This document shows, piece by piece, positions 1 through 25,889 of a stretch of 32,804 bases of DNA (its first letter is position 1; each line of letters opens with the position of its first letter). The notes under the pieces were generated by a model that had not been told where the DNA came from, did not search any database, and worked only from the letters and a program-made list of their open reading frames with translations. A program made the position numbers and the translations under genes. Origin of the DNA: Gammaproteobacteria bacterium (GTDB taxonomy: Bacteria > Pseudomonadota > Gammaproteobacteria > Xanthomonadales > SZUA-5). The stretch spans positions 1 through 32,804 of the forward strand of contig JAUIFV010000036.1 of NCBI GenBank assembly GCA_030430155.1. Reading direction: 5' to 3'.

Positions 1-304
1 GACAGAGCAACAGCAGACAGCAAAGACGAAAGCAACAGAGCTCGGCAGCTCTTGACAGCGGGTGGGGTCATAGAAGGATGTGGTGAACGCCAGCGAACCG
101 CATCAACTGATGGTGGTTAGTGCGGAAAACCACTTCCAGGCGCAGGAAATCACGATTGCGGGAAGCGATGCTCTTCTGGGCCCTGGGCCCTGTGCCCTGT
201 GCCCTTTGCATTCCCATACCTCCACATTCCCTCCATCCTTCCTCCAAATTGCCAGCTGATCATCACTCTCACTGGGCCAGTCCGGCCCGCTGAGGAGATC
301 AACC
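1..304. other. Non-coding leader region with repeat tail
   Basis: No credible gene is seen here; the open frames overlapping it are low-complexity shadows. Bases about 24-56 (GACGAAAGCAAC then GGCAGCTCTTGAC) resemble the sequence preceding the heptad repeats near 2600 and 2690, so this looks like another, heptad-less piece of the same repeat family. A true heptad array follows at 177-204. The Shine-Dalgarno GAGGAG at 292-297 belongs to the gene starting at 305. Confidence 0.5.
177..204 (+). repeat. Heptad repeat copy A (TGNGCCC x4)
   Basis: Four perfect 7-bp units in a row: TGGGCCC, TGGGCCC, TGTGCCC, TGTGCCC. It is preceded by GCTCTTC, which resembles the GCTCTTGACCTCC flank of copies C and D. 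The C-rich strand reads toward the gene at 305. The opposite strand carries four GGG tracts separated by 4-nt loops. Confidence 0.85.
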
Positions 305-742
305 ATGGATCTGTTGACGTTGCTGGCCGCGAGCTGGCTATCCGCTACGGAGCCACCGCAGGCGCCGGTCGCCGATGCGCAGCCGCTGCAGTTGGCCCAG
401 GCCGACGGCCCGCCACGCGGACCGGGTCGACGCCATCGCCAGCCGCCCGACCCACAGCAGCTGGCCACCGAACTGGGCCTGGACCCCAGCCAGAGCAGTC
501 AGTTCGTGGCCATCCTCAATGAGCAGCGCGGCAAGCACGAAGCGCTGCGCGAGCAGATGCGCGGCGAGCGCGAGGCGGCGCGGCAGGCCCATCAGCGCAT
601 CGACGAGGAGACTTTCACCCGCCTGTCGACGGTACTGAGCAACGAGCAACTGGCGCGCTTCCACGCCCGTCGCCCAGCGCCCCCGCCAGAGCGCGAGCGG
701 CGCCGCGGACCGGGCAATCGGGGCTATGGAGGTCAATCATGA
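305..742 (+). CDS. Spy/CpxP-like periplasmic protein (LTxxQ-type)
   Basis: A 145-residue protein, probably exported. Residues 2-15 are hydrophobic but the n-region has no basic residue, so the signal peptide is atypical; cleavage may follow AQA near residue 33. The mature part is charged and helical. It has two elements resembling the LTxxQ motif of the Spy/CpxP family: LGLDPSQ at 57-63 and LSNEQ at 111-115, separated by an Arg/Glu/Gln-rich helix. The tail is Pro/Arg-rich. The ATG is supported by GAGGAG seven bases upstream. The stop overlaps the next start in ATGA, so it is translationally coupled to the haem peroxidase. In E. coli, spy is a BaeR target, and baeSR lies just downstream here, which fits an envelope-stress role. 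Family membership is inferred from short motifs only. Confidence 0.6.
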   Translation: MDLLTLLAASWLSATEPPQAPVADAQPLQLAQADGPPRGPGRRHRQPPDPQQLATELGLDPSQSSQFVAILNEQRGKHEALREQMRGEREAARQAHQRIDEETFTRLSTVLSNEQLARFHARRPAPPPERERRRGPGNRGYGGQS

Positions 743-2469
743 AACGACTGAGCATTGGCTATGCCTTTGGACTGACACTTTGCGGAATGAGCATGGGCGC
801 CGCCCTCGCCCAGGAGCCGAAGCCCAACAAGCCCGAACAGGGTGCCGAACTGCTGCGCAAAGCGGACGAGCAGGCCAGCGACCCGCTGGTTTCCCCAGTG
901 CAGCGCATCGAACGGCGACCGCTGGGGATGGAGGATCTGCCGCGAGCTATAGACCATCCCAGCATCGACGGCAGCGAGCACCGCCTGGACCAGCCGTCAC
1001 ACAACGCCGCTCATCAGCCGCTGCGCCGCCGCTTCGCCAGCGCCTACGCCGACGGCGTCTCCGCTTTAGCCGGTGCCGACCGGCCCAGCGCGCGCGAGGT
1101 CAGCAACGGTTTGCACGCGCAAGACGAGTCCATCGAAAACCGCCGCGGCGCCAGCGACTATCTGTGGCAATGGGGTCAGTTCATCGATCACGACATTGAT
1201 CTCACCGACGGTGCCGATCCCGCCGAACTGGCGCCCATCGCGGTGCCCGCAGGCGATCGCTGGTTCGATCCTGACGGCAGCGCCGATGCCTTTATCACCT
1301 TCAACCGCTCCCTCTACGACACCGCCACCGGCAGCGGCGCCGGCAATCCGCGCCAGCAGATCAACGAGATCAGCGGCTGGCTGGACGGCTCGATGGTCTA
1401 CGGCTCCGACGCCACCCGCGCCAGCGCGCTGCGCAGCTTCCGCGGCGGCATGCTGGCGACCAGTGAGGGCGATCTGCTGCCCTTCAACACTCAGGGTCTG
1501 TCCAACGCCGGCGGGCCCGCCGATACGCTGTTCTTGGCCGGGGACGTTCGCGCCAACGAGCAGATCGGGCTGACCGCCATGCACACCCTGTTCGTCCGCG
1601 AGCACAACTGGTGGGCCAGGCGTATCGCCCGTGAGCAGCCGCGGCTCAGCGACGAGGAGATCTATCAGCGCGCCAGGGCCATGGTCATCGGCGAGATCCA
1701 GGCCATCACCTACCGCGAGTTTCTTCCGGTGCTGCTCGGCGAGGACGCCATCGCGCCATACCGAGGCTATGCCCCGCGGGTCGATGCGCGGATCTACAAC
1801 GCCTTCTCCACCGCCGCCTACCGACTCGGCCACAGCATGCTCAGCCCGACCATCCGCCGGGTCGGCGCAGACGGCCGGTCCATCGCGGCTGGCGATCTGG
1901 CGCTGCGCGACGCCTTCTTCTCGCCGCAGAAACTGGCCGAAGACGGCATCGAGCCGCTGTTGCGCGGTCTGGCCGCACAGCGCTGTCAGGAAATCGATGT
2001 CTTCGTCATCGACGACGTACGCAACTTCCTGTTCGGCGCCCCCGGCAGCGGCGGCTTTGATCTGGCTGCACTGAACATCCAGCGCGGCCGCGATCACGGC
2101 CTGCCCTCCTACGTGGCGGTGCGCCGCGCCCTGGGCTCGCCGCCGATCCGACGCTTCGAAGACATCAACCCGGACCGCCGCATCCGCCAGCGCCTGGCCG
2201 CCACCTACCAGAGCGTGGAACAGATCGACCTGTGGAGCGGATTGCTCGCCGAAGCCCCAGTGCGCGGCGCGATGGTCGGCCCCACCCTGCGCCGACTGCT
2301 GGGTGATCAATTCCAGGCTCTGCGCGACGGCGACCGCTTTTACTACGAGGGGCGCATGGACCGCCGCCAGATCGATGAGATCAACCGCACGCGGTTGGCG
2401 GATATTGTGAGGCGGAATAGTTTGGTCGGGGCGGAGCTTTCTGACGCGGTGTTTTTGGTCGAGAGGTAG
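739..2469 (+). CDS. Secreted animal-type haem peroxidase
   Basis: A 576-residue member of the animal haem peroxidase (peroxidase-cyclooxygenase) superfamily, with a classic signal peptide ending ALAQ near residue 25. Visible landmarks are the distal motif WGQFIDHDIDLT at 145-156 with distal His151, REHN at 287-290 with the catalytic Arg287, the proximal motif YRLGHS at 361-366 with His365, and the conserved LNIQRGRDHGLPSY segment from 445. All key catalytic residues are present, so it should be active, oxidising halides or phenolics with H2O2 in the periplasm or outside the cell. The physiological substrate cannot be told from sequence. It overlaps the Spy-like gene by four bases and is followed 22 bp later by an inverted heptad repeat. 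Haem-peroxidase identity is secure. Confidence 0.93.
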   Translation: MKRLSIGYAFGLTLCGMSMGAALAQEPKPNKPEQGAELLRKADEQASDPLVSPVQRIERRPLGMEDLPRAIDHPSIDGSEHRLDQPSHNAAHQPLRRRFASAYADGVSALAGADRPSAREVSNGLHAQDESIENRRGASDYLWQWGQFIDHDIDLTDGADPAELAPIAVPAGDRWFDPDGSADAFITFNRSLYDTATGSGAGNPRQQINEISGWLDGSMVYGSDATRASALRSFRGGMLATSEGDLLPFNTQGLSNAGGPADTLFLAGDVRANEQIGLTAMHTLFVREHNWWARRIAREQPRLSDEEIYQRARAMVIGEIQAITYREFLPVLLGEDAIAPYRGYAPRVDARIYNAFSTAAYRLGHSMLSPTIRRVGADGRSIAAGDLALRDAFFSPQKLAEDGIEPLLRGLAAQRCQEIDVFVIDDVRNFLFGAPGSGGFDLAALNIQRGRDHGLPSYVAVRRALGSPPIRRFEDINPDRRIRQRLAATYQSVEQIDLWSGLLAEAPVRGAMVGPTLRRLLGDQFQALRDGDRFYYEGRMDRRQIDEINRTRLADIVRRNSLVGAELSDAVFLVER

Positions 2470-2491
2470 TTGGTCGAGGAACGCTGAGAAA

Positions 2492-2519
2492 GGGCCCAGG
2501 GCTCATGGCCCAGGGCCCA
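2492..2519 (-). repeat. Heptad repeat copy B (x4, reverse)
   Basis: On the plus strand the units are GGGCCCA, GGGCTCA, TGGCCCA and GGGCCCA, i.e. the TGNGCCC heptad on the minus strand with one decayed unit. On the minus strand it is preceded by CGCTCTTGCTTTTC and followed by TTTCTCAGCG; the TTTCTCA tail also follows copies E and H. Its C-rich strand points back into the 3' end of the peroxidase gene. Confidence 0.8.
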
Positions 2520-2603
2520 GAAAAGCAAGAGCGTGGCGACTCCGGCTCTGCGCGCCTTGGACCTCAATCTGTCGAAGGGCGAGGGCTACGAAGAGCAACA
2601 ACC

Positions 2604-2651
2604 GCGAGCCGCCAACCGCTCTTGACCTCCTGGGCCCTATGCCCTGAGCCC
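2604..2651 (+). repeat. Heptad repeat copy C with conserved 5' flank
   Basis: The flank GCCGCCAACCGCTCTTGACC is followed by TCC and three heptads (TGGGCCC, TATGCCC, TGAGCCC) at 2631-2651. It is nearly identical to copy D 89 bp downstream. The longer shared flank shows that the repeat unit is larger than the heptad array itself. Confidence 0.8.
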
Positions 2652-2692
2652 TCGATAAGTCGAGAGTCCAGGGGCATAGACGAAAATCACCT

Positions 2693-2747
2693 GCGAACCG
2701 CCAGCCGCTCTTGACCTCCTGGGCCCTGGGCCCTGAGCCCTGCGCCC
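2693..2747 (+). repeat. Heptad repeat copy D with conserved 5' flank
   Basis: Same flank as copy C, then four heptads at 2720-2747 (TGGGCCC, TGGGCCC, TGAGCCC, TGCGCCC). An extra TGAGCCC lies out of phase shortly after. The C-rich strand points toward baeS at 2836. Confidence 0.85.
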
Positions 2748-2835
2748 TCACCAATCCCTGAGCCCTCCCACCCCAACCTCGTACTCTGCACGCCAACCGC
2801 CGATATCCTTACCCGAAAACCTTCCCCGCACACCA

Positions 2836-4329
2836 ATGAACCTCTACTGGAAACTCTTCCTGGCCCTGTTCGCCTCGGTGCTGATCGGCGCCGGGGCGTT
2901 GGCGTTGTTGAGTCAGTGGCGGCTGGATCGGGGCTTTGTCGACTATGTGAATGCGGCGGACGCGGGGCGGCTGCCGGAGCTTGCCGAGGTCGCGGCGGCG
3001 ATCTATGCAGCCGATGGCGGCTGGGGCGAGGTGGAGCGGCGGCCGCGGCGCTGGCAGCGGGCCCTGCGCGATGCGCTGCGCGGCGATCGGCCGTCGGAAT
3101 TCGATCATCGGCCGCCGCGCGGTCCACCTCCGCCGCGCCGGCATCCGCGGCCGCACGACGCAGTCGGTGCAGACTACGATCCACCTCCGCCGCCGCGGCC
3201 CAGAGGTCCAGGTCCGCCGCATCAAGGCCTGCCCGAACGAATCGCACTTCTGGACGCCAGTGGCCTGGTGCTTGCCGGTCGCTCCGAACCCAGCGACGAC
3301 ATGCCCAGCGCACCCGTCCTGGTCGATGGTGTGGAGGTCGGCCGGCTGGTGTTGGCCCCGGCACGACGGCCCGGCTCGGTGCAGGACACGGCCTTCCTGC
3401 TCGCCCAGCGTGACTGGCTGCTGCGGGTGGTGCTGATCATGCTGCCGATTGCCGCGCTGTTCGCCTTCCTGCTGGCGCGCCATCTGCTCGCCCCGGTAAG
3501 AGCGATCAGCACCCAGGCGCGACGGCTGGCCAGCGGTGACTTCGCCGCACGCGTCCCCCGCGAGGGCGACGACGAACTGGGCCGGCTGGCGCGCGACTTC
3601 AATCTGCTCGGGCGCGCGCTGAACGAATACGACGGTGCGCGCAAACGCTGGATGGCCGACGCCGCGCACGAGCTGCGTACGCCGCTGGCGGTGCTGCAGG
3701 CCGAGATCGAGGCGCTGCAGGACGGCATCCGCAGCGTCGACAGCCGCGCCCTGCAGGGTCTGCACAGCCAGACTGTGCAGCTGGGCACGCTGGTCAACGA
3801 TCTGCACCAGCTGGCACTGGCCGACGCCGGTGCGCTGGACTACCGCATGCATGAGGTGGACGTCGACAGCGAGCTGATCAGCGCCGTCGAGGCCCATCGC
3901 GGTCGGCTGGAAGACGCCGGCCTGGAGCTGCGGCTGCTTCCGGCAACGGCGATCAAGGCCCGGGTGATGGGCGATGAGCGCCGCCTGCGCCAGCTGTTCG
4001 ACAATCTGATTGAAAACGCGCGCCGCTACACGCGCGCTCCGGGCCTGCTCAGCATCAGCCGCGAACGCGTCGCCGGCTGCTGGCAGCTGCATCTGGACGA
4101 CAGCGCCCCAGCGGTGGCCGCCGATCGCTGCGAGCGGCTGTTTTCACCCTTCGTGCGCGACGACGAGCGACTCCGTGCCGATGGCGTCGAGCCCGCCGGC
4201 AGCGGTCTGGGCCTGGCTATCTGCAGACGAATCGCCCAGGCCCATCAGGGCCAGATCAGCGCCGCACCCTCGGCTCTGGGCGGACTGCGGGTAAGCTTGT
4301 CCATCCCTTTGCTCGATGCGAGCCAGTGA
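2836..4329 (+). CDS. baeS: Sensor histidine kinase BaeS
   Basis: A 497-residue inner-membrane histidine kinase of the envelope-stress BaeSR system. The order is TM1 (about 5-27), a periplasmic sensor, TM2 (about 195-217), HAMP, HisKA with phosphoacceptor His278 in AHELRTP, then HATPase with N-box LFDNLIENA (Asn394), a DSAP G1-like box as in E. coli BaeS, F-box LFSPF and G2-box GSGLGLAI near 455-462. The sensor loop has an unusual Pro/Arg/His-rich stretch at about residues 88-133 with runs of four and five prolines, which could be a metal- or polyanion-responsive insert (speculative). The stop overlaps the baeR GTG by four bases. The gene order baeS-baeR matches E. coli, but no mdtABC efflux genes are visible here. 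Confidence 0.88.
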   Translation: MNLYWKLFLALFASVLIGAGALALLSQWRLDRGFVDYVNAADAGRLPELAEVAAAIYAADGGWGEVERRPRRWQRALRDALRGDRPSEFDHRPPRGPPPPRRHPRPHDAVGADYDPPPPPRPRGPGPPHQGLPERIALLDASGLVLAGRSEPSDDMPSAPVLVDGVEVGRLVLAPARRPGSVQDTAFLLAQRDWLLRVVLIMLPIAALFAFLLARHLLAPVRAISTQARRLASGDFAARVPREGDDELGRLARDFNLLGRALNEYDGARKRWMADAAHELRTPLAVLQAEIEALQDGIRSVDSRALQGLHSQTVQLGTLVNDLHQLALADAGALDYRMHEVDVDSELISAVEAHRGRLEDAGLELRLLPATAIKARVMGDERRLRQLFDNLIENARRYTRAPGLLSISRERVAGCWQLHLDDSAPAVAADRCERLFSPFVRDDERLRADGVEPAGSGLGLAICRRIAQAHQGQISAAPSALGGLRVSLSIPLLDASQ

Positions 4330-5021
4330 GCGCAGCACGCATCCTGATCGCCGAAGACGAGGCCCGCCTGGCCAGCGTGATGGCGGACTACCTGAGCGCC
4401 AGCGCGCTACAGGCACGCATAGTCGATCGCGGCGATCTGGTGATGGCGGAGATAGAGCAATGGCAGCCAGAGCTGCTGCTGCTTGATTTGAATCTCCCCG
4501 GCGTCGACGGGCTGACACTGTGCAAGCAGATTCGCGCCTCAAGCACGCTGCCGATCATCATGGTCACCGCCCGAGTGGACGAAGTGGATCGACTGCTGGG
4601 GCTCGAGCTCGGCGCCGACGACTACATCTGCAAGCCCTTCAGTCCGCGCGAGGTGGTGGCCAGGGTGCGCGCCGTGCTGCGCCGCAGCGGGCCGCAGCCG
4701 ACAGCATCACAGCAACCCTTGCAGCTCGATCATGCCGGCCGCAGCGCCAGCGCCAACGGCCGACCGCTGAGCCTGACTGACGTCGAGTTCCGCCTGCTGG
4801 AGCACATGTCTGCCCGACCGGGACGAGTTTGGTCGCGCGCTCAGCTACTCGATCAGGTCTACCCCGATCAGCGCGAGGTTTCCGACCGCGCCATCGACAG
4901 CCACATCAAGAATCTGCGCAAGAAGCTGGAATCGGCAGCGCCGCAGATGCGCTGGATCCATTCGGTGTATGGGGTCGGCTATCGATTCGAGATCGAATCT
5001 GTGGGCGGAGAAGCCGGTTGA
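4326..5021 (+). CDS. baeR: Response regulator BaeR
   Basis: A 231-residue OmpR/PhoB-type response regulator. The receiver domain (about 4-118) has acidic pocket Glu10/Asp11, phosphoacceptor Asp54 in LLLLDLNLPG, Thr81 and Lys103 in DDYICKP. The winged-helix domain occupies about 130-225. Long stretches match E. coli BaeR as I know it, including DGLTLC, RLLGLELGADDYICKP, SPREVVARV and DSHIKNLRKKLES, so orthology is likely. The start is GTG, overlapping the baeS stop as GTGA, which implies coupled translation. Its targets in this organism are unknown; the Spy-like/peroxidase operon upstream is a good candidate. Confidence 0.92.
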   Translation: MSAARILIAEDEARLASVMADYLSASALQARIVDRGDLVMAEIEQWQPELLLLDLNLPGVDGLTLCKQIRASSTLPIIMVTARVDEVDRLLGLELGADDYICKPFSPREVVARVRAVLRRSGPQPTASQQPLQLDHAGRSASANGRPLSLTDVEFRLLEHMSARPGRVWSRAQLLDQVYPDQREVSDRAIDSHIKNLRKKLESAAPQMRWIHSVYGVGYRFEIESVGGEAG

Positions 5022-5103
5022 CGGTCACAGTTCCCTGCTACGCGACTCGGCATGCTGCACCTGCCCCTATGCCGCCAAACCGATGCACTGCGAGGCCTGG
5101 ACC

Positions 5104-5517
5104 ATGAACCGCATCTCCCTGCACACCCTCAACCGCTCGCTGCTGCGCGCGAGTCTGGCTGCTGCGCTATGCCTGCTCCTGGCCTGCCAATCCGAGCCGG
5201 GGAACAGCACTGACGTCACCTCTGAGGTGCAGCAATCCAGCCCCGCATCGCCGCCAGCGCCACCTCTGTCAGCGGCTCCAGCCGCTCTCGATGAATACTC
5301 GCCAGCGCCCAGCCCTGTCCCGGCTGCCAACTACTTCGACCAGGCGCGCTTACGCGCCGATCAGAAGCTCGAGCAGCAATCCGAGCACTGCCTGCAGATC
5401 GAAGCGCGACTACAGGACGACTGCATCACCTCTGCCAACACCCAGCACGAGGCCGCCATCGCCGCAGCGCGAGTGGAATACGAGGCGCAGCTGGCCGAAG
5501 CCGAGCAGGAGCACTAG
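5104..5517 (+). CDS. Small lipoprotein of unknown function
   Basis: A 137-residue predicted lipoprotein. The basic-hydrophobic signal ends in the lipobox LLAC with the lipidated Cys at residue 28. A Pro/Ser/Ala linker (about 45-80) follows, then a charged helix rich in Glu, Gln and Ala with two further cysteines near 98 and 106. An in-frame ATG lies further upstream at 4969, inside baeR, but only the start at 5104 gives a sensible signal peptide. It is 82 bp downstream of baeR on the same strand, so it may be co-transcribed and act in the same envelope response. No family recognised. Confidence 0.7.
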   Translation: MNRISLHTLNRSLLRASLAAALCLLLACQSEPGNSTDVTSEVQQSSPASPPAPPLSAAPAALDEYSPAPSPVPAANYFDQARLRADQKLEQQSEHCLQIEARLQDDCITSANTQHEAAIAAARVEYEAQLAEAEQEH

Positions 5518-5564
5518 CCGTAGTTCATGGGTCTGCTGCTGCAGCCGCCGTGGCGCGATCTGCG

Positions 5565-6908: not shown

Positions 6909-6939
6909 GGTCAAGGCTCACTAGGCGAAAGCGGCGCAG

Positions 6940-6960
6940 GCTAGCGCCGTCCCGGCTAGC
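6940..6960. promoter_or_regulatory. Paired GCTAGC site upstream of ankyrin gene
   Basis: Two copies of the self-palindrome GCTAGC lie 15 bp apart (centre to centre) and 32 bp upstream of the ankyrin start. It could be an operator for a dimeric regulator, but no promoter could be assigned confidently and chance is possible. Confidence 0.25.
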
Positions 6961-7022
6961 TGCGCAGCCCAAGTGAGTCGAATTACAAAGCGCTGCACCA
7001 AAGGCCCCGCCTAGACACAAAA

Positions 7023-7051
7023 CTTGGGCAGCTCAAATGGAGCTGCCCAAG
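7023..7051 (-). terminator. Rho-independent terminator of DUF4397 gene
   Basis: A perfect 12-bp stem (CTTGGGCAGCTC and GAGCTGCCCAAG) with loop AAATG; in minus-strand sense it is followed by TTTTGTGT. It lies 72 bp beyond the stop of the DUF4397 gene, with the heptad repeat copy E between stop and hairpin, so the repeat would be transcribed into the 3' UTR. Confidence 0.8.
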
Positions 7052-7076
7052 CCATCGCTATCTCCCAGTCTCATTC

Positions 7077-7111
7077 TGGGCCCTATGCCCTGGGCCCTTT
7101 CTCATGAGCCC
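7077..7111 (+). repeat. Heptad repeat copy E
   Basis: Units are TGGGCCC, TATGCCC, TGGGCCC, then the TTTCTCA tail in the same 7-bp phase, then TGAGCCC. It sits 11 bp from the DUF4397 stop codon with the C-rich strand pointing into the gene's 3' end. In the DUF4397 transcript it would be G-rich. Confidence 0.8.
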
Positions 7112-7122
7112 TGACCTCTCAC

Positions 7123-8913
7123 CTACCGTGCGTCCAGGCAGGCCGCACTCGGCATCAGATTGGTGATCGCAAAGGTGCCGCTGCCGATGCCGTCAATCTC
7201 GTAGCTGGCCTGGGCGTCGGTGCACGGGGTGTCGCCGAAGTCCAGGGTCAGCAGACCAACCCGGGTCAGCATCGGCATATTGCCCCCACCGAAGGTGCCG
7301 CCGGAGGTCGAGTAGACCGCCATTTCCGCGGTGCGGTTGTCGAAGCCACCCGGATTGGCGCAGCTGCTGTCGCCGGGTGCCGACTGGCAGGTATCGACCA
7401 CGAACCAGCGCTGATCGCCGCCGGCGGTGGCGTAGCTGTACCAGGTACCAACCAGTCGATTCTCTTCAGGTCGCGGAATCAGACTCAGACCCTCAAAGAT
7501 CTGATCGACGATGTTCCAGTGACCGTTGCTGGAGAAGTCCACCGGCGTTTCCAGCGGCAGCTCACCGACCGGCAGGGCGAGAATGCCCAGCGGCTGATTG
7601 ATCCCATCACCGATCGCAAAGACCGTGGCCTGCACGCCAGCCGGTAGCTCCACCTCAGGCAGATCGATCAAATTGGTGCTGCCGTTGGGCGTGGCCACCT
7701 TCAGATCCAGCGCGCCCACAGGCAGCGACAGAGCCGGGCTGAAGGCACCGTAGGGCACCTCGCTCAGTCCGGCCACGACGGCGCCGCCATCGGTGCGAAT
7801 CGACACTGCAGTGGCCGCGGCGGTGGCGGCGAAGGGTGCGGCGTGGACCACGCGCAGGGCGTAGTCGCCGCCGTCGATGGCCGGCACTTCGGTGGCCAGC
7901 AGGTCCAGCGGCTGGGTCAGCCCGTTGCCGACGGCAGCGGCCACATAGCCACGATTGCCGTCCAGCTGCAGCTCGCCGCTGATCGCCGGCTCGGTTGCGC
8001 CCACCGGCACCACATCGATCTGGTACGCCCCCTGCGCAGGCAGCGGCAGCGGATCGGTGAATTGCTTGTAGGTCACGCCGGAGAGGATCTGGGTACCGTT
8101 GACCAGCACGTTCACCGCGGTGTCGGCGATGACTGGCGCGAAGGGCGCCAGATGGGCGACGGTGACGTTGACCGGACCAATTTCAAACAGCGCCAACGGA
8201 TTGGTCGGCGCGGCACCCGGGGCGATTGCGCTCAGCCCCAGCGGGAAACCGTTGGCACCGCCCTGTGCGACCACGGTGACAATGGCGCCGGAATCCAGCC
8301 TGACCGGGCGCGCGTCGATAAAGTCGGCGCTTCCGTCCGGTGAAGCCACCTTCAGGTCATAGCGTCCAGCCGGTACTTCCAGGTAGTCACTGAAGGCGCC
8401 GAAAGGCACCGAGGCCAAGCCGCCGACCACCGCATTGTTCTGATCGCGCACCGAGACCGCGGTGCCGTCACCGGCGGCAAAGGGCGCAGCGTGCACCACA
8501 CGCAGCTTGATATTGCCGTCGGCCGGCGCGCTGTTGTCGTCGCTCAACGCGATCAATCCGAGGGGTTGGTTGGTGCCGTCGCCGGAAGCCAGCACGGTGT
8601 AGTCGCCGTCGGGCAAGGTAACTTCGGCGCTGATCGCCGCGGTCATGGTCCCGGTGGGCACGACTTCGAGCAGGTAGGTGCCGGCCTCACCCAGGGTCAG
8701 GTACTCGGTGAACTGGCCATAGCGGACATCGCTCAGCGCCTCAGCGCCGTTGACGCGAATGCTCACCGAGGTGCCGGCCAGGCTGTCGGCGAATGGAGCG
8801 AAGTGGCCCACGGTGGCGCGCACTTCGGCCAGCGCAGTCGCGCTGAAGGCCATACCGGCGAGGATCAAGCCTGCTTGCAGCAGGCGGGGTTTGAAAGCGT
8901 TTGCTACGTGCAT
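7123..8913 (-). CDS. Secreted protein with four DUF4397 units
   Basis: A 596-residue exported protein with a signal peptide ending ALA-E near residue 29. Four beta-rich DUF4397 units follow, at roughly 31-130, 131-240, 245-350 and 351-455. They alternate between two subtypes: odd units begin like VGHFAPFA or VAHLAPFA, even units LRVVHAAPFA. This points to a two-unit module that was duplicated. The C-terminal 130 residues are a separate Cys-containing domain with VGTWYSYATAGGDQRWFVVD. Function is unknown; the architecture suggests a surface or extracellular binding or adhesin-like protein. The ATG at 8913 was chosen because GATGAGGCG precedes it and the signal starts there; a GTG ten codons upstream adds an acidic leader. 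A strong terminator follows at 7023-7051. Confidence 0.85.
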   Translation of the reverse strand: MHVANAFKPRLLQAGLILAGMAFSATALAEVRATVGHFAPFADSLAGTSVSIRVNGAEALSDVRYGQFTEYLTLGEAGTYLLEVVPTGTMTAAISAEVTLPDGDYTVLASGDGTNQPLGLIALSDDNSAPADGNIKLRVVHAAPFAAGDGTAVSVRDQNNAVVGGLASVPFGAFSDYLEVPAGRYDLKVASPDGSADFIDARPVRLDSGAIVTVVAQGGANGFPLGLSAIAPGAAPTNPLALFEIGPVNVTVAHLAPFAPVIADTAVNVLVNGTQILSGVTYKQFTDPLPLPAQGAYQIDVVPVGATEPAISGELQLDGNRGYVAAAVGNGLTQPLDLLATEVPAIDGGDYALRVVHAAPFAATAAATAVSIRTDGGAVVAGLSEVPYGAFSPALSLPVGALDLKVATPNGSTNLIDLPEVELPAGVQATVFAIGDGINQPLGILALPVGELPLETPVDFSSNGHWNIVDQIFEGLSLIPRPEENRLVGTWYSYATAGGDQRWFVVDTCQSAPGDSSCANPGGFDNRTAEMAVYSTSGGTFGGGNMPMLTRVGLLTLDFGDTPCTDAQASYEIDGIGSGTFAITNLMPSAACLDAR

Positions 8914-9128: not shown

Positions 9129-11311
<2,183 letters not shown>

Positions 11312-14073: not shown

Positions 14074-14475
14074 ATGAGCAACACTGTTCTAAGCGCTGTT
14101 TTTTGTCTGCTGATGTCGGCGACGGCATTGGCGGCAGAGGAGGAGGCCGCGCCTCCCGCGCGCGCTCCCGATACCGATGTGACTGTTGCCGATCTGGGCA
14201 ATCCCGACGACAACGAACCCAACAGCAAAGAGCGCGGCACGCCGCACTCGCTTTCCACGGTCATTTCCCGCGGCGAGGACAAGGAAGGCCTGACCATGGA
14301 GGAGAAATGGAGCCACGACGTGGTGGTGTGCAAACGCCAGCAGGTCTCCGGCAGCCGCATCACCCGCAAGGTCTGCCACACCCGTGGCGAGTGGCAGGCG
14401 ATGCGCAACAACGCCCGCGAGTCTGTCGACGCGGCCATCCGCGAGGCGCTGATCTACGGGGTTGATGGGGGCTGA
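14074..14475 (+). CDS. Small secreted C-x6-GSR-x5-C-x5-W protein, paralogue 1
   Basis: A 133-residue exported protein with a signal peptide ending ALAA near residue 21, an acidic Pro/Ala linker, then the core. The core has Cys86, Gly93-Ser94-Arg95, Cys101 and Trp107, i.e. C-x6-GSR-x5-C-x5-W. Cys86 and Cys101 probably form a disulfide. It is closest to paralogue 3: both share SLSTV, GLTM-EKWSHDVVVCKR, KVCHTR-EWQAMR. The start was chosen because ATG at 14074 opens the signal peptide and GGAG motifs precede it; the frame is open far upstream into the previous gene. First of four tandem family members; function unknown. Confidence 0.8.
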   Translation: MSNTVLSAVFCLLMSATALAAEEEAAPPARAPDTDVTVADLGNPDDNEPNSKERGTPHSLSTVISRGEDKEGLTMEEKWSHDVVVCKRQQVSGSRITRKVCHTRGEWQAMRNNARESVDAAIREALIYGVDGG

Positions 14476-15240: not shown

Positions 15241-15570
15241 ATGAAGCGTTCATTCACCCTGTTTGCGTTTGCTGCCATGTTGTTCGCCTCCACAGCGCAA
15301 GCTGAAGATCAAACCACCAAATATTCAACAGGCGAGCGCGGCACCAAGGCCTCACTTTCCACGGTCTTGCACAAAGGCATCGAGCAAAAGGGACTCACCA
15401 TGGCAGAGAAATGGTCCCATGACGTGGTGGTTTGCAAACGCACTCAGATGACCGGCAGCCGCTTCTTCTTCAAGGTTTGTCATACCCGCGCCGAATGGCA
15501 AGCGATGCGCGCCAACGGCCGGGAAACCGCCAGCCATGCACAGCGTCTCAGTCGCATCAACGGCTTCTAG
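15241..15570 (+). CDS. Small secreted C-x6-GSR-x5-C-x5-W protein, paralogue 3
   Basis: A 109-residue exported protein with a signal peptide ending AQA near residue 21 and a short linker, then a core nearly identical to paralogue 1: Cys65, Gly72-Ser73-Arg74, Cys80, Trp86. Identity with paralogue 1 is high from SLSTV to WQAMR, while the signal peptide, linker and tail differ, which suggests the core is under selection. The ATG at 15241 is preceded by TTGGAG; an in-frame TTG four codons upstream is unlikely. The upstream 162-bp gap has an imperfect CTTGTG/CACAAG inverted repeat but no clear promoter. Confidence 0.8.
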   Translation: MKRSFTLFAFAAMLFASTAQAEDQTTKYSTGERGTKASLSTVLHKGIEQKGLTMAEKWSHDVVVCKRTQMTGSRFFFKVCHTRAEWQAMRANGRETASHAQRLSRINGF

Positions 15571-16115: not shown

Positions 16116-16142
16116 TGGGCCCTGGGCCCTAAACCCCGGGCC

Positions 16143-16143
<1 letters not shown>
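16116..16143 (+). repeat. Heptad repeat copy F abutting pip stop
   Basis: Units are TGGGCCC, TGGGCCC, TAAACCC, CGGGCCC. It is preceded by CCCTTGACGTCC, matching the GCTCTTGACCTCC flank of copies C and D. The last base of the array is the first base of the pip stop codon complement, so the repeat directly meets the gene end. Confidence 0.8.
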
Positions 16144-17321
<1,178 letters not shown>

Positions 17322-17336
17322 TCATCGCTCAATCAA

Positions 17337-17356
17337 GATGAAAGGATATAGTCATC
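17337..17356. promoter_or_regulatory. Possible autoregulatory operator at regulator start
   Basis: GATGA and TCATC form an inverted repeat with a 10-bp spacer just before the coding region of the ArsR-type regulator. ArsR proteins often bind dyads near their own start, so this is a candidate operator; the arms are short. Confidence 0.3.
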
Positions 17357-17377
17357 GACCTGACCCGCTGCACCGCG

Positions 17378-18282
17378 TTGCTCAAGCTGCTCGCCGATCC
17401 AACCCGGCTGCGGCTGCTTGCGCTGCTGGCGGGCGAGGAGTTGACCGTGGCGGAGCTGGCGGCAGCCACTCGGCTGGCCCAGCCAAGGGTGTCTACGCAT
17501 CTGGCCAAACTCAAGGAAGCTGGTCTGGTGCTGGATCGGCGCTCGGGTGTTTCGGCCTACTACCGCTTTCCGCTGGATGAACTGGAGGTGTCCACCCGCT
17601 CGACCTGGGAGCATCTGCAGGCGATCGCGGACGATGGGCTACTTAGCGAGGACGCCGTGCGCCTGCGCGAGGTACTGGCCAATCGCGCGCGTTCTGAGAA
17701 CTGGGTCGATCAGGTTGCCGGTGACATGGAGAGGCACTACTCGCCAGGCCGGACTTGGGATGCGCTGGCCCGGGCGCTGACCTTTCTGATCGATGCCGGC
17801 GACGTGCTCGATGTGGGATCAGGCGACGGTCTGATGGCCGAGATCCTGGCTCCGCAGGTGCGTTCGATGATCTGCCTGGACGTCAATCCGAGGGTCGTCG
17901 AGGCGGCACGCAGCCGGTTGATGGCATTCCCTCAGGTCCGCGTCGACCAGGGTGACATGCACGATCTGCCGGTTGCCGACGCCGCCGTGGACTGCGTGCT
18001 GTGTTTCCAGGTGCTGCCCTACAGCGACCGACCCGACCAGGTCTTCGCCGAAGCGGCGCGGGTGCTGCGCCCCGGGGGTCGTTTGCTGCTGACCACCTTG
18101 GCCAACCACCGCCACGCCGGCACGGTTGCGCCCTACGGTCACAGCAACCTGGGCCACAGCGCGGATGAACTTCACGCGCTGTGTGCGTCGGTGGCCCTGC
18201 AATCGAAGTTCTGCGGCGTCTCCAGCCAGGAACGACGCCCGCCCCATTTTGAAGTCCTCACCCTGCTCGCCGAGAAGAACTG

Positions 18283-18283: not shown

Positions 18284-22017
<3,734 letters not shown>

Positions 22018-22041
22018 GCAGGACCGGTCTGCGACGACCTA

Positions 22042-22479
22042 TCAAGCCCCAATGAAGACGAGCGATCCGCTCCCATTCGATACGGCATCGGCAGCCAATC
22101 GCCCATCCATCGTCGCCAGTACACCACCATTCGCACAAGCCAATCCGAGTAGATAGCTATCGGTCACTCGCGAATGGCTGGATAGCCCATCCAAGTTGAA
22201 GTAGGCATCATCGACTAAGCTGATCGTATCCGGCCAGAAGTGGTGCCCACCCATCTGCCGGATCGCAACCAGCGTCCGCGCGACAATGCTCGGCGGGCCG
22301 GGTGAGTTTGGATACTTGGGGTGTCCCAGAATTCTCAACAACCCGTTCTCGGTGAGTGGGCAAGTCGCAAATGCGCTGGAACCGACGCGCCCGAACCAAT
22401 CATGAGCAACCTCATGCTGGACGTGAGCGGGATCAACCAGTGCGATAAGGATGTTGATATCGAGCAGATGAACCGTCAC
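22042..22479 (-). CDS. vapC: VapC-type PIN-domain ribonuclease toxin
   Basis: A 145-residue PIN-domain protein. The acidic active-site set is visible: Asp7 in LLDINILIAL, Glu44 in LTENGLL, Asp107 in VTDSYLLGLA and Asp125 in ATMDGRL, so an Mg-dependent RNase is expected. It starts with GTG overlapping the antitoxin stop (GTGA), the usual coupling in VapBC modules. It is convergent with metH, 24 bp from its stop. The cellular RNA target cannot be predicted. Confidence 0.93.
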   Translation of the reverse strand: MTVHLLDINILIALVDPAHVQHEVAHDWFGRVGSSAFATCPLTENGLLRILGHPKYPNSPGPPSIVARTLVAIRQMGGHHFWPDTISLVDDAYFNLDGLSSHSRVTDSYLLGLACANGGVLATMDGRLAADAVSNGSGSLVFIGA

Positions 22480-22703
22480 GGCAGCTCATCTAGCAGCTCA
22501 TTTACCAGCTCGGGCGTCACCGGCATTGTGCTGCGCACCGGCAAGAGCGGGACTCCATTCCGACGTACCGGTGGCTTTGTGGACGGTGCCAAGGCCTGTC
22601 TGACCAGGGCCGAGATCACCTCCCCCACACTCTTCTGGTCGCGTTGAGCGAGGTGCTTTGCCAACGCCAGTACATCGTCGTCGATAGTGATTGTAGTACG
22701 CAT
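22476..22703 (-). CDS. vapB: VapB-type ribbon-helix-helix antitoxin
   Basis: A 75-residue antitoxin. The N-terminal MRTTITIDDDVLALAKHLA has the ribbon-helix-helix pattern for DNA binding, and the C-terminal Pro/Leu-rich tail (about 45-75) should wrap the toxin. The ATG follows AGGAGA at good spacing. It is the first gene of the vapBC operon and probably autorepresses through the repeats just upstream. Confidence 0.9.
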   Translation of the reverse strand: MRTTITIDDDVLALAKHLAQRDQKSVGEVISALVRQALAPSTKPPVRRNGVPLLPVRSTMPVTPELVNELLDELP

Positions 22704-22717
22704 CGTCTTGCTCTCCT

Positions 22718-22746
22718 GATGCTACGCATCATACATCACGCATCAC
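22718..22746 (-). promoter_or_regulatory. Candidate vapBC operator
   Basis: GATGC-TAC-GCATC at 22718-22730 is a perfect palindrome. It merges into three CATCA repeats at 7-8 bp spacing (22728-22746). Ribbon-helix-helix antitoxins commonly bind such short tandem or inverted sites near their promoter. Confidence 0.45.
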
Positions 22747-22767
22747 GAGCTACCGACCGGTTCCCGT

Positions 22768-24201
22768 CTATTGCCGATACCACTTCTCCACCACGATCCG
22801 CTCCGCCCCCGTCTGGCCACGCATGAAGGCTTCAATCCGTTCGCCAACCGCCGGTGAGCTCATGAACAGGTTGTGGCCGGCGTACTCGACCACGGTGATC
22901 TGCGCCTTGGACAGGCCGGCGACGGCCTGTCGCTGGCTGTCGGGATAGGTGCGACCGTCCAAAGTGCCGCTAAGCACCAGCACGGCCACGTCACTGACCG
23001 GACCACGACGGAAGTCTTCGCCCAGATCCAAACCGGGTACCAGCCCTTCCAGCTGCGGCATCGGGAAATTCAGATAGCCGCCCAGCAGCGCGTCTTTGGA
23101 TTCGGACTCAAAGCGGCGCAGCGCGGGGCGGCTGATGCCCGAGGCGATGTCCATGCCGAACGGCATGGGATTGAAGCGGATCGGCTGACCCGGTCGATGA
23201 AAGCGTCCCACGACCATCGCCAGCGGTTCCAGCACACCGGCGTCGACTGCGGCGTAGAGCTGCAGCAGCTGCAGCGCGTTGGACGGATCAGCAATCATCA
23301 TCGAGGCGAACTGCTGCATGTCGCGGCGCTCGAGCAGGAAGGCGTATGGCTCACCGGCCGGCGGGGTGATCTGGAGCGTGATCGGCTCGGCTTCCAGCTT
23401 CTGGTGAACCCGTCGGATCAGCCCGCGCAGATCGGGAAACTGCGCGGCCAGCTCGGGCTCGGCACTGATCGCCTCCTGCAGTCGCTCGAAGTAGGCGTCG
23501 GTCTGAGCCGGGCTCTTCACCGTTTGCGCCAGTCCCTCGACGCTGGCCAACACGACTTTGTCGATGCGATCGTCCATCGCCGCCAGCGCGGCCAGTGCCA
23601 AGTGACTGCCGTAGGAAATGCCCCACAGGCTGATCTTCTCCGCGCCCAGATGCTGTCGCAGCGCGTCCAGATCGCGCACGCTCTGCGCCGTAGTCCAATC
23701 GCGCAGGTCAACATCGCTGGCCTTCCATTGCGCCAGGCATTCCCGCGCCGCCGCGCGATGCAATTCCACGAACTGCTCATCGCTGTAGGCCACCGCATCA
23801 TCGACCACCTGGCTGCTGCTGCATCCAGGCTGCGGGCTGCTGGCACCGGTGCCGCGCTGATCGAAGGCGATCACATCGCCGAACTCGCGCAGCGCCATGA
23901 ACAGCGCGAAGCGCCGTCCTTTAGCGGTCTCAATACCCGAACCACCCGGCCCGCCGGCCAGATAGACGATTGGCGAACCTTCGCCATTCCCTGTCGCCGG
24001 GAAGCGCACATAGCTTAGCGACAGCTCGCCGCCCTCCGGGCGCTCCCAGTTGAGCGGCACGGTGAACTGGCCCTGCAGCGCGGCGACAGATTCGCCGCCG
24101 TGGGCGGCAAAGATGATGGATGCTTCGCCGGCAGGTGCGGCGCCAAGCGCGGCGCTGGCGCAGCTCAGGGTTAAGGATAGGACGGTGGCAAGCAGTCGCA
24201 T
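22768..24201 (-). CDS. Secreted alpha/beta hydrolase, TAP-like peptidase
   Basis: A 477-residue exported hydrolase related to tripeptidyl aminopeptidases (family S33, with a TAP-like C-terminal region). The signal peptide ends near residue 20. Catalytic features are the oxyanion segment LAGGPGGSG at 81-89, nucleophile Ser196 in WGISYGS, Asp415 in SGTLDGRTYP and His443 in EYAGHNLF. The ATG at 24201 has GGAAGA five bases upstream. It likely trims peptides in the periplasm or medium, though esterase activity cannot be excluded. It is divergent from a LytTR regulator across a gap holding a perfect palindrome, so that regulator may control it. Confidence 0.88.
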   Translation of the reverse strand: MRLLATVLSLTLSCASAALGAAPAGEASIIFAAHGGESVAALQGQFTVPLNWERPEGGELSLSYVRFPATGNGEGSPIVYLAGGPGGSGIETAKGRRFALFMALREFGDVIAFDQRGTGASSPQPGCSSSQVVDDAVAYSDEQFVELHRAAARECLAQWKASDVDLRDWTTAQSVRDLDALRQHLGAEKISLWGISYGSHLALAALAAMDDRIDKVVLASVEGLAQTVKSPAQTDAYFERLQEAISAEPELAAQFPDLRGLIRRVHQKLEAEPITLQITPPAGEPYAFLLERRDMQQFASMMIADPSNALQLLQLYAAVDAGVLEPLAMVVGRFHRPGQPIRFNPMPFGMDIASGISRPALRRFESESKDALLGGYLNFPMPQLEGLVPGLDLGEDFRRGPVSDVAVLVLSGTLDGRTYPDSQRQAVAGLSKAQITVVEYAGHNLFMSSPAVGERIEAFMRGQTGAERIVVEKWYRQ

Positions 24202-24277
24202 GGGGTCTTCCAATCGTGATAGTGGCCCTCACACTGAGAGAAAACCTTCGCCACGTCAGCAACTTATCTGCCAGCGG

Positions 24278-24300
24278 CACCGTTGAACCGGTCAACGGTG
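24278..24300. promoter_or_regulatory. Perfect 9+9 bp palindrome in divergent gap
   Basis: CACCGTTGA and TCAACGGTG flank a 5-bp spacer, ACCGG. The site lies 77 bp upstream of the hydrolase start and 37 bp upstream of the regulator start. The 14-bp centre-to-centre distance between arms suits a dimeric regulator. LytTR proteins often bind direct repeats, so the binder may or may not be the neighbouring gene. Confidence 0.55.
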
Positions 24301-24336
24301 ACCACACTACCGCTCGCCGATGCCTATCATTGCGCT

Positions 24337-25827
24337 ATGCGATTCCTGCTCGCCCTGCTGCTTTGCGCGCTGAGTCTGCTGCCTGCCAAAGCGGGGGCGC
24401 AGGCCATGCCCACAACCATGGTTGATGTCTGCCCGGCAATCAGCGACAGCACCTCGCCACCGGCAAGCTTCGATGCTCCCGACTGCGAGCGACTACCGCT
24501 GCATCAGGTCGATCCGCAGGGCAAGCTGCTATGGCTGCGGCTGACCTTGGAGCCGCCGCGGCCCGACGACTATCGCTTCGTCGGTCTGCTGGTCGCGGGC
24601 AAGGGTTCCAGCGAGGTCTATGTGGACGGCGAGCTGGTCGGCCGCAACGGCATCCCCGGTGCCGATCGCCGTAGCGAAACGCCCGGTCGTATGGATGCGG
24701 TGCTACCACTGGATCCACAGCGGCTGCGGGACAGCGGCGGAGAGGTGGTGCTGAAGATGTCGGCCCAGCACGGCTGGCTGCACCTGTACAGCCCGCTACA
24801 CGCCATCGCCCTGGTCCACAACCCGGACGCGCAGGACCGGATGCTGCGCTACTACCTGCCGGCGCTGCTGCCGCTGGGCGTGTTTCTGCTCGCCGCCTTC
24901 TACTTCGGCTCGCTGACGCTGCGCAGTGAACGCAAAGCCAATGCCGCCCTGCTCGCCGCGCTGGCGCTGATCGCCGCCGCGCAGCTGCTGCTGGAGATCG
25001 GCCGCGGCGTATACGCCTACAGCTACCCGCTACACGATCTGCGGCTGATGGGCATCGTGGCCTGCGCCAGCGCATTCGGTCTGTGTCTGATCGCCCTGCT
25101 GTGGCGAACCTACGCGCCGCGCGGGCTGATCCCGGCGCTGACAGCAGCGGTGCTGTCGATGGCCGTGGCCCACAGTCTGTACAGCGCGATGGATCCGCGC
25201 ACAGCGGTGGCCCTGTTCATCGGCAGCCTATATGCGCTGCCGGCCGCGCTGATCGGCGTACGTGCCAAGGCACGCGGCGCACTGACCTATGCGCTCGGTC
25301 TGAGCGTGTTCACCGCCTTCAACCTGCTCGACCCCGGCGCATTCATCGACTACGGCTACTACCTGCTGGCGGCGCTGCTGATGGTGGTGTTGATGATCCT
25401 GCAGGCCGCCGCCTACAGCCGCGAACGCGACCAGCAGGTGCAGCAGCGGCTGCGCGCCGATCGCCTGCAGAGGGCGCTGGACCAGCAGCAGGCCGAGCGC
25501 AGCCCGCAGACGCTGGCCGTACCCGGCACCGGCAGCATGCGCCAGGTCGCTGTTGACATGATTGTCCGCATCCAGGGCGCAGGCGACTACGTCGAGCTGC
25601 ATCTGGACGACGGCAGCCAGCTGCTGCACAGCGCCACCTTGAACGAACTCGACGCCGAGCTACCGCCCAGTTTTCTGCGCGTGCATCGCTCGCATCTGGT
25701 CAACACGCGCTACATCGACCGATTGGAACGCCACGATGGCGGCACCGGTTTGCTGCACTTGAGCTGCGGCGACCCGGTGCCGGTCAGCCGACGGGTGATG
25801 CCCGGGGTGCGGCGGGCGCTGCGTTGA
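24337..25827 (+). CDS. Membrane-bound LytTR-family transcription regulator
   Basis: A 496-residue protein with a signal peptide (1-22), a periplasmic beta-rich domain (about 45-165) with LWLRLTLEPP, then roughly seven membrane helices (about 174-360), a short Gln/Arg-rich coiled coil (361-392) and a C-terminal LytTR DNA-binding domain (about 395-496) with RIQGAGDYVELHL and FLRVHRSHLVN. The layout resembles the 7TM diverse-intracellular-signalling receptors, with the output domain being DNA binding itself, a one-component membrane sensor. The ATG at 24337 was chosen because it opens the signal peptide; its ribosome site is weak. Probably senses an extracytoplasmic ligand; targets may include the divergent hydrolase. 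Confidence 0.85.
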   Translation: MRFLLALLLCALSLLPAKAGAQAMPTTMVDVCPAISDSTSPPASFDAPDCERLPLHQVDPQGKLLWLRLTLEPPRPDDYRFVGLLVAGKGSSEVYVDGELVGRNGIPGADRRSETPGRMDAVLPLDPQRLRDSGGEVVLKMSAQHGWLHLYSPLHAIALVHNPDAQDRMLRYYLPALLPLGVFLLAAFYFGSLTLRSERKANAALLAALALIAAAQLLLEIGRGVYAYSYPLHDLRLMGIVACASAFGLCLIALLWRTYAPRGLIPALTAAVLSMAVAHSLYSAMDPRTAVALFIGSLYALPAALIGVRAKARGALTYALGLSVFTAFNLLDPGAFIDYGYYLLAALLMVVLMILQAAAYSRERDQQVQQRLRADRLQRALDQQQAERSPQTLAVPGTGSMRQVAVDMIVRIQGAGDYVELHLDDGSQLLHSATLNELDAELPPSFLRVHRSHLVNTRYIDRLERHDGGTGLLHLSCGDPVPVSRRVMPGVRRALR

Positions 25828-25861
25828 GTCTGGTGCGGAGCGTGTTGCTTCGGCGTTGATC

Positions 25862-25889
25862 TGGGCCCTGCGCCCTGTGCCCTGGACCC
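25862..25889 (+). repeat. Heptad repeat copy I
   Basis: Units are TGGGCCC, TGCGCCC, TGTGCCC, TGGACCC. It sits between the LytTR gene and the kinase. The preceding TTGCTTCGGCGTTG resembles the flank of copy G in reverse. The C-rich strand points toward the kinase. Confidence 0.8.

What the first reader, a model, noticed from the sequence alone, without database searches (positions are those of the whole stretch)
177..25889. Dispersed intergenic heptad repeat family (TGNGCCC) in nine places
Arrays of two to four 7-bp units lie at 177, 2492 (reverse), 2631, 2720, 7077, 16116, 17148 (reverse), 17263 and 25862, all outside genes. Several share flanks: GCTCTTGACCTCC before the array and TTTCTCAGC after it. 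This is more structure than a simple microsatellite; it looks like a family of small repeated elements of roughly 60-80 bp. I do not recognise it as a known REP, BIME or MITE.
Basis: seen in the sequence. Interest (0 to 1): 0.78.

Follow-up and report, generated by a model that had tools for sequence, protein, structure and literature searches.

The report
Gene-end heptad repeats with lineage-specific wording
Short arrays of about four seven-letter repeats sit near gene ends roughly a thousand times in this bacterium's genome; they follow a layout already described for Xanthomonas and Nostoc but spell a different seven-letter word, which casts doubt on the explanation given so far (four-stranded DNA).

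Summary
All nine arrays are at the stated places, outside called genes. The family is genome-wide: TGNGCCCTGNGCCC has 1,497 matches in 5.06 Mb, reversed control 0. A sample picked by contig number, blind to hits, holds 47 arrays of three or more units in 241 kb, which extrapolates to about 1,000. The period is 7, the commonest length is four units (27 of 47), and 41 of 47 are outside called genes. The CCC strand points at the nearer gene (36 of 40), often starting within 20 nt of its stop codon. Neighbouring arrays mostly form inverted pairs.

This is the layout that Rehm et al. 2015 (PMC4692102) describe for GGGNATC heptads in Xanthomonas and Nostoc, with another word (GGGCNCA on the G strand). 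Relatives use other words: TGNGCCC is abundant in 3 of 61 genomes, and NATTCCC is absent from those three. TGGGCCC is self-complementary, so computed folds of example arrays favour hairpins over the quadruplex proposed for Xanthomonas, and perfect four-unit arrays are rare (2 of 96).

Verdict: a new variant of a known kind; function is inferred, not shown.

The parts
177..204 (+). heptad array, 4 units (TGGGCCC TGGGCCC TGTGCCC TGTGCCC), 100 nt before the gene called at 305 +
2492..2519 (-). heptad array, 4 units (one ends CCA), reads toward the stop codon (2469) of the animal-haem-peroxidase-type gene; left half of an inverted pair
   Evidence: gene family
2520..2630 (.). 111-nt spacer between inverted arrays (by arithmetic from the array ends)
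2618..2630 (+). leader GCTCTTGACCTCC before the array
2631..2651 (+). heptad array, 3 units; lies in a 70-nt segment (2583-2652) repeated at 2672-2741 (81%)
2707..2719 (+). leader GCTCTTGACCTCC before the array
2720..2747 (+). heptad array, 4 units, 88 nt before the histidine-kinase gene at 2836 +
   Evidence: gene family
7077..7097 (+). heptad array, 3 units, 25 nt from the 3' end of the DUF4397 gene 7123-8913 -; followed by TTTCTCA
   Evidence: gene family
16116..16143 (+). heptad array, TGGGCCC TGGGCCC TAAACCC CGGGCCC; its last base is the first of the gene end at 16143 (alpha/beta-hydrolase gene 16143-17102 -)
   Evidence: gene family
17148..17175 (-). heptad array, 4 units, 45 nt before the called start of the alpha/beta-hydrolase gene; left half of an inverted pair found at the same place in the congener G001
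17176..17262 (.). 87-nt spacer of the inverted pair, poorly conserved in G001
17263..17276 (+). heptad array, 2 units, followed by TTTCTCAGC; right half of the inverted pair, also in G001; before the ArsR-HTH/methyltransferase gene at 17378 +
   Evidence: gene family
25862..25889 (+). heptad array, 4 units (TGGGCCC TGCGCCC TGTGCCC TGGACCC), 66 nt before the protein-kinase gene at 25956 +
   Evidence: gene family

Best explanation
This is a lineage-specific version of the intergenic GGG/CCC heptad repeats described in Xanthomonas and Nostoc by Rehm et al. 2015. SHOWN here for this genome: 7-nt period, commonest length four units, CCC tracts kept while the other letters vary, mostly intergenic placement, CCC strand pointing at the nearer gene, arrays often within 20 nt of a stop codon, convergent inverted pairs, and fewer arrays between divergent than between convergent genes; and in the order, different heptad words in different lineages. 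INFERRED: the arrays work as folded nucleic acid at transcript ends. Behind a stop codon the transcribed strand is G-rich and would fold at once, by computed energies into a GC hairpin in this lineage and into a G-quadruplex in the Xanthomonas version. That fold would block 3' exonucleases or separate neighbouring transcripts, and an inverted pair does so for both flanking genes. INFERRED: arrays lengthen and shorten by 7-nt slippage and, in this genome, selection holds them near four tracts. NOT EXPLAINED: how they spread and how one word came to fill a whole genome.
For: Period: four CCC tracts with 4-nt loops 68 in 313 kb, loops of 2, 3, 5, 6 and 7 nt 0; whole genome 1,114 against 1 for 5-nt loops. 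Length, blind set, three or more units: 3:11, 4:27, 5:4, longer 5, of 47; counting from two units with a TGGGCCC start, first set: 2:12, 3:14, 4:38, 5:4, longer 4, of 72. Constraint in the 96 arrays used of the 100 rows listed out of 432 matches: non-C at CCC sites 11 of 576, non-G at loop sites 187 of 576. Orientation: nearer gene ahead 55 of 64 and, blind, 36 of 40; solitary arrays 28 of 35, P 5e-4. Stop-facing arrays: 44 of 65 overlap the gene end or start within 20 nt of it, 12 of them abutting the stop codon. Adjacent arrays within 400 nt, blind: (-,+) 15, (+,-) 1, same strand 6; arrays between divergent genes 0 in 24 gaps, convergent 13 in 23, tandem 27 in 68. Relatives: nearer gene ahead 18 of 19 in G031, 8 of 10 in G001, 8 of 11 in G008. 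The same layout is described in PMC4692102 (abstract, passages and sections 10, 13 and 16 read).
Against: No expression, binding or structure data exist for this organism in what I had. The sequence after the arrays lacks the T run of an intrinsic terminator on either strand (T fraction 0.07-0.22 in the next 8 nt), so ordinary termination is not supported. In inverted pairs the two arms match at unit 2 (13 of 22, P 0.011) but not at units 3 and 4 (1 of 14; 2 of 6), so one long hairpin between arms is not under clear selection. With a looser definition of 'partner', solitary arrays of the first sample were only 11 of 15 (P 0.12). 10 arrays of the first sample do lie between divergent genes (42 gaps), and 6 of 47 blind arrays fall inside called genes. 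Start-facing arrays, 39 of 104, are not explained by a 3'-end role. The preference for four is not universal in relatives: four units in 3 of 16 arrays of G008 (6 of 16 have eight or more), 3 of 10 of G001 and 8 of 19 of G031.
Confidence: 0.4

Rival explanations
1. G-quadruplex (and C-rich i-motif) formation is the selected function in all lineages, as Rehm et al. consider for Xanthomonas; the loop letters do not matter.
For: Four GGG tracts with 4-nt loops is a quadruplex motif; the length peaks at four here; CCC is kept and loops vary; the different words of relatives mostly keep CCC. Rehm et al. report quadruplex formation of the Xanthomonas and Nostoc repeats in vitro.
Against: TGGGCCC is self-complementary. 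Computed DNA hairpins of six example arrays are -8 to -15 kcal/mol on both strands, against 0 for a Xanthomonas-type array. With the quadruplex option on, ViennaRNA still chooses the hairpin (-19 to -25) for five example arrays of this genome but a quadruplex (-9.6) for the Xanthomonas type. If loops do not matter, one loop word should not fill the genome.
Confidence: 0.2
2. The arrays are binding sites of a sequence-specific protein (nucleoid, topoisomerase or regulator) that reads a 28-bp site; the word changes when the protein changes.
For: Uniformity of the word within this genome and other words in relatives; first unit TGGGCCC in 54 of 64 and 26 of 40 arrays; 7/14/21-nt spacing.
Against: Inner units are very variable (28 kinds of unit 3 in 96 arrays); some arrays have 16-17 units; no candidate protein was sought.
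Confidence: 0.2
3. Neutral slippage of 7-nt repeats, tolerated in gaps and removed from genes.
For: Length varies; long runs exist, for example 99 units in a relative's locus L225; heptads without CCC exist in G008 and G061; G008 shows no peak at four; the polymerase-slippage idea is cited in PMC4692102 and PMC4679880 (passages).
Against: In this genome a peak at four, orientation toward genes, inverted pairs, few arrays in divergent gaps and kept CCC tracts.
Confidence: 0.1
4. Relics of a small inverted-repeat mobile element (array - core - array) spread by a transposase.
For: A similar 30-32-nt spacer in 7 of 19 inverted pairs of the first sample; a 70-nt duplicated segment at 2583-2652 and 2672-2741.
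Against: Such a spacer in 0 of 15 blind pairs; one weak Y1 transposase match in the genome with no TGGGCCC array in the 8 kb read around it, and no visible link between such matches and array number in 9 genomes; spacer poorly conserved in G001 while the arrays are kept at one gap.
Confidence: 0.1

Closest known systems
GGGNATC / GGGGA(C/T)T heptameric G-rich repeats of Xanthomonas and Nostoc (Rehm et al. 2015, PMC4692102)
   Same: Heptad period, GGG per unit, preference for four units, intergenic, G strand sense just after stop codons or antisense before starts, convergent pairs (Xanthomonas), under-representation between divergent genes.
   Different: Other word (GGGCNCA), self-complementary so that hairpins compete with quadruplexes; perfect arrays rare; about 1,000 arrays of three or more units by extrapolation against 183-186 patterns of two or more units per Xanthomonas genome.
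TAACTGA heptamer repeats of marine Beggiatoaceae (PMC4679880, abstract and passages seen)
   Same: Dispersed intergenic heptad arrays in gammaproteobacteria.
   Different: No G tracts; [quoted passage not shown]
STRR heptanucleotide repeats of cyanobacteria
   Same: Recalled as short intergenic heptad arrays with strain-specific words.
   Different: Recalled, not tested here; no paper on them was read (one search gave a listing only).
REP/BIME elements with RAYT transposase
   Same: Intergenic, often in inverted pairs at gene 3' ends (recalled).
   Different: Heptad arrays instead of a palindromic unit; no TGGGCCC array by the one Y1 transposase match.

Membership tests
Rehm-type G-rich heptad repeats | Tandem heptads each with a GGG tract | tested here: met
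Rehm-type G-rich heptad repeats | Preference for four units | tested here: met
   27 of 47 blind arrays, 47 of 76 first-sample arrays; 38 of 72 counted from two units
Rehm-type G-rich heptad repeats | Mostly intergenic | tested here: met
   41 of 47 blind and 74 of 76 first-sample arrays not inside called genes
Rehm-type G-rich heptad repeats | G strand sense after stop codons or antisense before start codons | tested here: met
   36 of 40 blind, 55 of 64 first sample; distances; start-facing arrays lie farther off, 16 of 39 within 50 nt
Rehm-type G-rich heptad repeats | Convergent inverted pairs; under-represented between divergent genes | tested here: met
   blind set 15 to 1; arrays per divergent gap 0 in 24 (blind), 10 in 42 (first sample), against 13 in 23 and 20 in 26 for convergent gaps
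Rehm-type G-rich heptad repeats | Unit GGGNATC or GGGGA(C/T)T | tested here: not met
   three joined NATTCCC units: 0 in this genome; the word is GGGCNCA
Rehm-type G-rich heptad repeats | Forms a G-quadruplex in vitro | not testable with these tools
   computed folds of example arrays favour hairpins
Rehm-type G-rich heptad repeats | Transcribed | not testable with these tools
   no RNA data
REP/BIME-RAYT | RAYT gene flanked by the repeats (recalled) | tested here: not met
   one Y1_Tnp match, no array of two or more units with TGGGCCC in the 8 kb read around it
MITE | Inverted terminal repeats with target-site duplication (recalled) | tested here: inconclusive
   inverted arrays present; no systematic empty-site comparison; the 16116 array is not seen in G001 but that gap is too diverged to read a scar
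Rho-independent terminator | GC hairpin followed by a T run | tested here: not met
   T fraction 0.07-0.22 in the 8 nt that follow
Rfam RNA families | Match above the gathering score | tested here: not met
   0 matches in the window

The most novel reading that the evidence does not exclude
The heptad is an exchangeable, lineage-wide 'word' in a kept architecture. A trans-acting sequence-specific factor (a protein, or a templating activity) rewrites or selects one word across about a thousand sites per genome, and the shared function is recognition of 7-nt-spaced CCC tracts, not G-quadruplex formation.
Probability: 0.2. Interest if true: 0.8.

Novelty: new variant of a known kind. Interest (0 to 1): 0.5.

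Why it matters
Rehm et al. left the function of such arrays in Xanthomonas and Nostoc open. This order supplies a natural experiment: a similar architecture with different words, one of which should not form a quadruplex easily. Comparing the words in a simple reporter separates quadruplex, hairpin and protein-binding explanations. It also raises an open question: how a genome comes to carry the same short word at many hundreds of scattered places while its relatives carry another.

Tried and rejected
Rejected: chance or GC drift (reversed-pattern control 0; 5-nt loop 1); intrinsic terminators (no T run); a uniform 60-80 bp element; RAYT/REP; known RNA family.

Led nowhere: naming the organism. 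The named-genome scan with the alpha/beta-hydrolase protein 16143-17102 kept 80 loci of 65-76% identity; the top one is Frateuria flava and many of the best are Rhodanobacter, Dyella and other Lysobacterales (some are draft genomes labelled as other phyla), so the order is inferred as Xanthomonadales/Lysobacterales and the species is unknown. The tool says that the window's own records may be left out there. Literature: searches on heptads, quadruplexes and relatives listed no paper on this word, and a search for its letters (TGGGCCCTGGGCCC and two rotations or complements) gave 0 papers; this speaks only for the open library held. Of PMC6200779 and PMC4679880 I saw passages only. My regular expression for G109 was wrong (it excluded the ATT loop), so its three G109 arrays there mean nothing; one search shows G109 arrays. 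The idea that the GCTYTT leader is shared by other families rests on few and partly duplicated loci and is not claimed. Gene calls come from a simple script of mine, not from a standard gene finder; start codons are approximate. Two-unit arrays are left out of most counts.
Full report
OBSERVATION. Each begins with TGGGCCC and continues with T...CCC units (one unit at 2492 ends CCA). In the window two joined units occur 18 times outside called genes and 0 times inside, with genes covering 86%; single TGNGCCC heptads occur 30 times outside and 14 inside. The window is a contig of a 5.06 Mb draft genome in 287 contigs. The best named relatives of its alpha/beta-hydrolase protein are mostly Lysobacterales, best identity 76%; the organism itself is not named.

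SCALE. TGNGCCCTGNGCCC has 816 + 681 matches in the genome and the reversed control 0. Four CCC tracts with 4-nt loops give 1,114 matches (overlaps counted); the same with 5-nt loops gives 1. In 313 kb chosen partly by hits the 4-nt loop gave 68 and loops of 2, 3, 5, 6 and 7 nt gave 0. A second sample, every 15th contig by number (18 stretches, 240,967 bases), has 47 arrays of three or more units, 19.5 per 100 kb, which extrapolates to about 1,000 in the genome. TGGGCCC follows TGGGCCC at 7, 14 or 21 nt in 58 of the 62 blind cases within 60 nt.

ARRAY ANATOMY. Copy numbers (three or more units) in the blind set are 3:11, 4:27, 5:4, 6:1, 7:2, 8:1, 9:1; in the first set 3:18, 4:47, 5:4, 6 or more:7. 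Counted from two units with a TGGGCCC start, the first set gives 2:12, 3:14, 4:38, 5:4, longer 4, of 72. The pattern TGGGCCCTNNNNNNTNNNNNNTGGGCCC has 432 matches, control 0. Of the 100 rows listed I used 96. The six inner CCC positions depart from C in 11 of 576 cells, the six loop positions from G in 187 of 576. Arrays with both inner units equal to TGGGCCC are rare: 2 of 96, where unit 2 is TGGGCCC in 52 and unit 3 in 28, about 15 expected if independent (Fisher P 1.4e-9). The two samples agree: 0 of 36 (P 8e-4) and 1 of 24 (P 0.013), though they may share arrays with the listed rows. Perfect runs do exist: 3 of 31 matches of a five-unit pattern are perfect.

PLACEMENT. With script-made gene calls, 6 of 47 blind and 2 of 76 first-sample arrays fall inside genes. 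The CCC strand points to the nearer gene in 36 of 40 blind and 55 of 64 first-sample arrays. Arrays without an opposite partner in the gap do the same in 28 of 35 (P 5e-4); with a looser definition of partner the first sample alone gave 11 of 15, not significant. Of 65 arrays facing a stop codon, 4 overlap the gene end, 12 abut the stop codon, 18 are 1-10 nt and 10 are 11-20 nt away, 21 are farther. Of 39 facing a start, 16 are within 50 nt. Adjacent arrays within 400 nt are in the order minus, plus in 15 of 22 blind cases and plus, minus in 1. Divergent gaps hold 0 arrays in 24 gaps of 60 nt or more (blind), convergent 13 in 23, tandem 27 in 68; in the first sample 10 in 42, 20 in 26 and 34 in 85. 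The genes beside the window arrays are of unrelated families (haem peroxidase, histidine kinase, DUF4397, alpha/beta hydrolase, ArsR-methyltransferase, protein kinase).

FLANKS AND CORE. GCTCTTGACCTCC occurs 7 times in the genome. In the first sample, partly chosen through that flank, GCTCTTGAC precedes 8 of 64 arrays; in the blind sample 0 of 40. GCTCTT precedes 8 of 40 blind arrays and follows 0 of 40; the base before the array is C in 38 of 40 and the base after is T in 35 of 40. A spacer of 30-32 nt between inverted arrays, similar in sequence in most cases, occurs in 7 of 19 pairs of the first sample (exactly 31 nt in 5) and in 0 of 15 blind pairs.

RELATIVES. In 61 genomes TGNGCCCTGNGCCC exceeds 20 matches in three: this genome (1,497), the same-genus G001 (274) and G031 of another family (398); the next is G030 with 12, and the other congener, G002 (80% complete), has 5. 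The 'control', read backwards, is itself abundant in other genomes (G004 319, G008 299, G021 289), which showed that relatives use other heptads such as GAGTCCC. In 121 genomes of the order, four CCC tracts with 4-nt loops reach 50 or more matches in 27 and are at least five times the 5-nt-loop count in 20 of these. Loops differ: NATT in G109, G061 and G019, GTGC in G008, TGNG here. Three joined NATTCCC units occur in 16 of 121 genomes and in none of the three TGNGCCC genomes. Some counts are inflated by poly-C (seen in a stretch of G068) or by long runs. Placement holds in small samples of relatives (nearer gene ahead 18 of 19 in G031, 8 of 10 in G001, 8 of 11 in G008), but the preference for four does not hold in all: 8 of 19, 3 of 10 and 3 of 16, and G008 has 6 of 16 arrays of eight or more units. 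In 143 genomes of the class most counts are 0-20, with exceptions such as G203 (205) and G156 (92). Orthologous gaps: both arrays of the pair at 17148/17263 are present in G001 while the spacer is not conserved; no array is seen there at the place of 16116; the gap with arrays at 2492-2747 holds TCAGCCC heptads instead. In five loci of other genera of the family the gap upstream of the hydrolase gene holds CGTGCCC-type heptads (G008), CTTGCCC heptads (G006) or no array of three or more units (G003, G005, G007).

WHAT IT IS AND HOW IT MAY WORK. Rehm et al. 2015 (PMC4692102; abstract, passages and sections 10, 13 and 16 read) report for GGGAATC in Xanthomonas and GGGGA(C/T)T in Nostoc: 183-186 patterns per Xanthomonas genome, preference for four units, intergenic bias, G strand near stop codons on the sense strand or before starts on the antisense strand, convergent pairs, rarity between divergent genes, quadruplex formation in vitro, function unknown; they write that they found such repeats in Xanthomonas but not in other gammaproteobacteria. 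A later survey notes quadruplex motifs around transcription starts in Xanthomonadales (PMC6200779, passages). The present family matches the layout but not the word. It also weakens the quadruplex explanation: computed DNA hairpins of six example arrays are -8 to -15 kcal/mol on both strands, while a Xanthomonas-type array has none; with the quadruplex option on, the RNA program keeps the hairpin for five example arrays and picks a quadruplex for the Xanthomonas type. The deficit of perfect arrays would fit a limit on self-complementarity, but the energy effect is small: C-rich strand mean -10.73 observed against -10.92 in 200 re-pairings of the same units, at the edge of their range; G-rich strand -10.61 against -10.76, inside the range near its edge. 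I favour folded nucleic acid at transcript ends, hairpin or quadruplex by lineage, acting as a barrier behind the stop codon. This is inference. Intrinsic termination is not supported, arms of pairs are not clearly kept complementary, and start-facing arrays need another account. A sequence-reading factor remains open and would explain best why one word fills a genome.

VERDICT. A real, abundant family; a new variant of a published kind, with a comparative twist that makes the quadruplex explanation testable.

Noticed in passing
window 30679-30978 and 32415-32714: Two genes one gene apart (called 30272-31144 - and 31948-32802 -) share a 300-nt stretch at 85%; it looks like a duplication.
   Followed up: no
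window 14230-14420 and 15334-15524: Two small genes share 191 nt at 73%; related stretches lie on several contigs of the congener G001.
   Followed up: no
L193:3073-3114; also 42 TCAGCCC units in the 313 kb first sample of the window's genome: A second heptad class, TCAGCCC, coexists with TGNGCCC in this genus and stands in its place in one orthologous gap.
   Followed up: partly
relative G025 (places listed): Octad arrays CCCCGATT in one relative: the same idea with period 8.
   Followed up: no
L069, a G008 locus: Heptads without CCC (CGACAAC) follow directly after CCC heptads, so not every heptad array here has G tracts.
   Followed up: no
L225: A run of 99 units, GATTCCC in those shown after the first, in one relative.
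   Followed up: no
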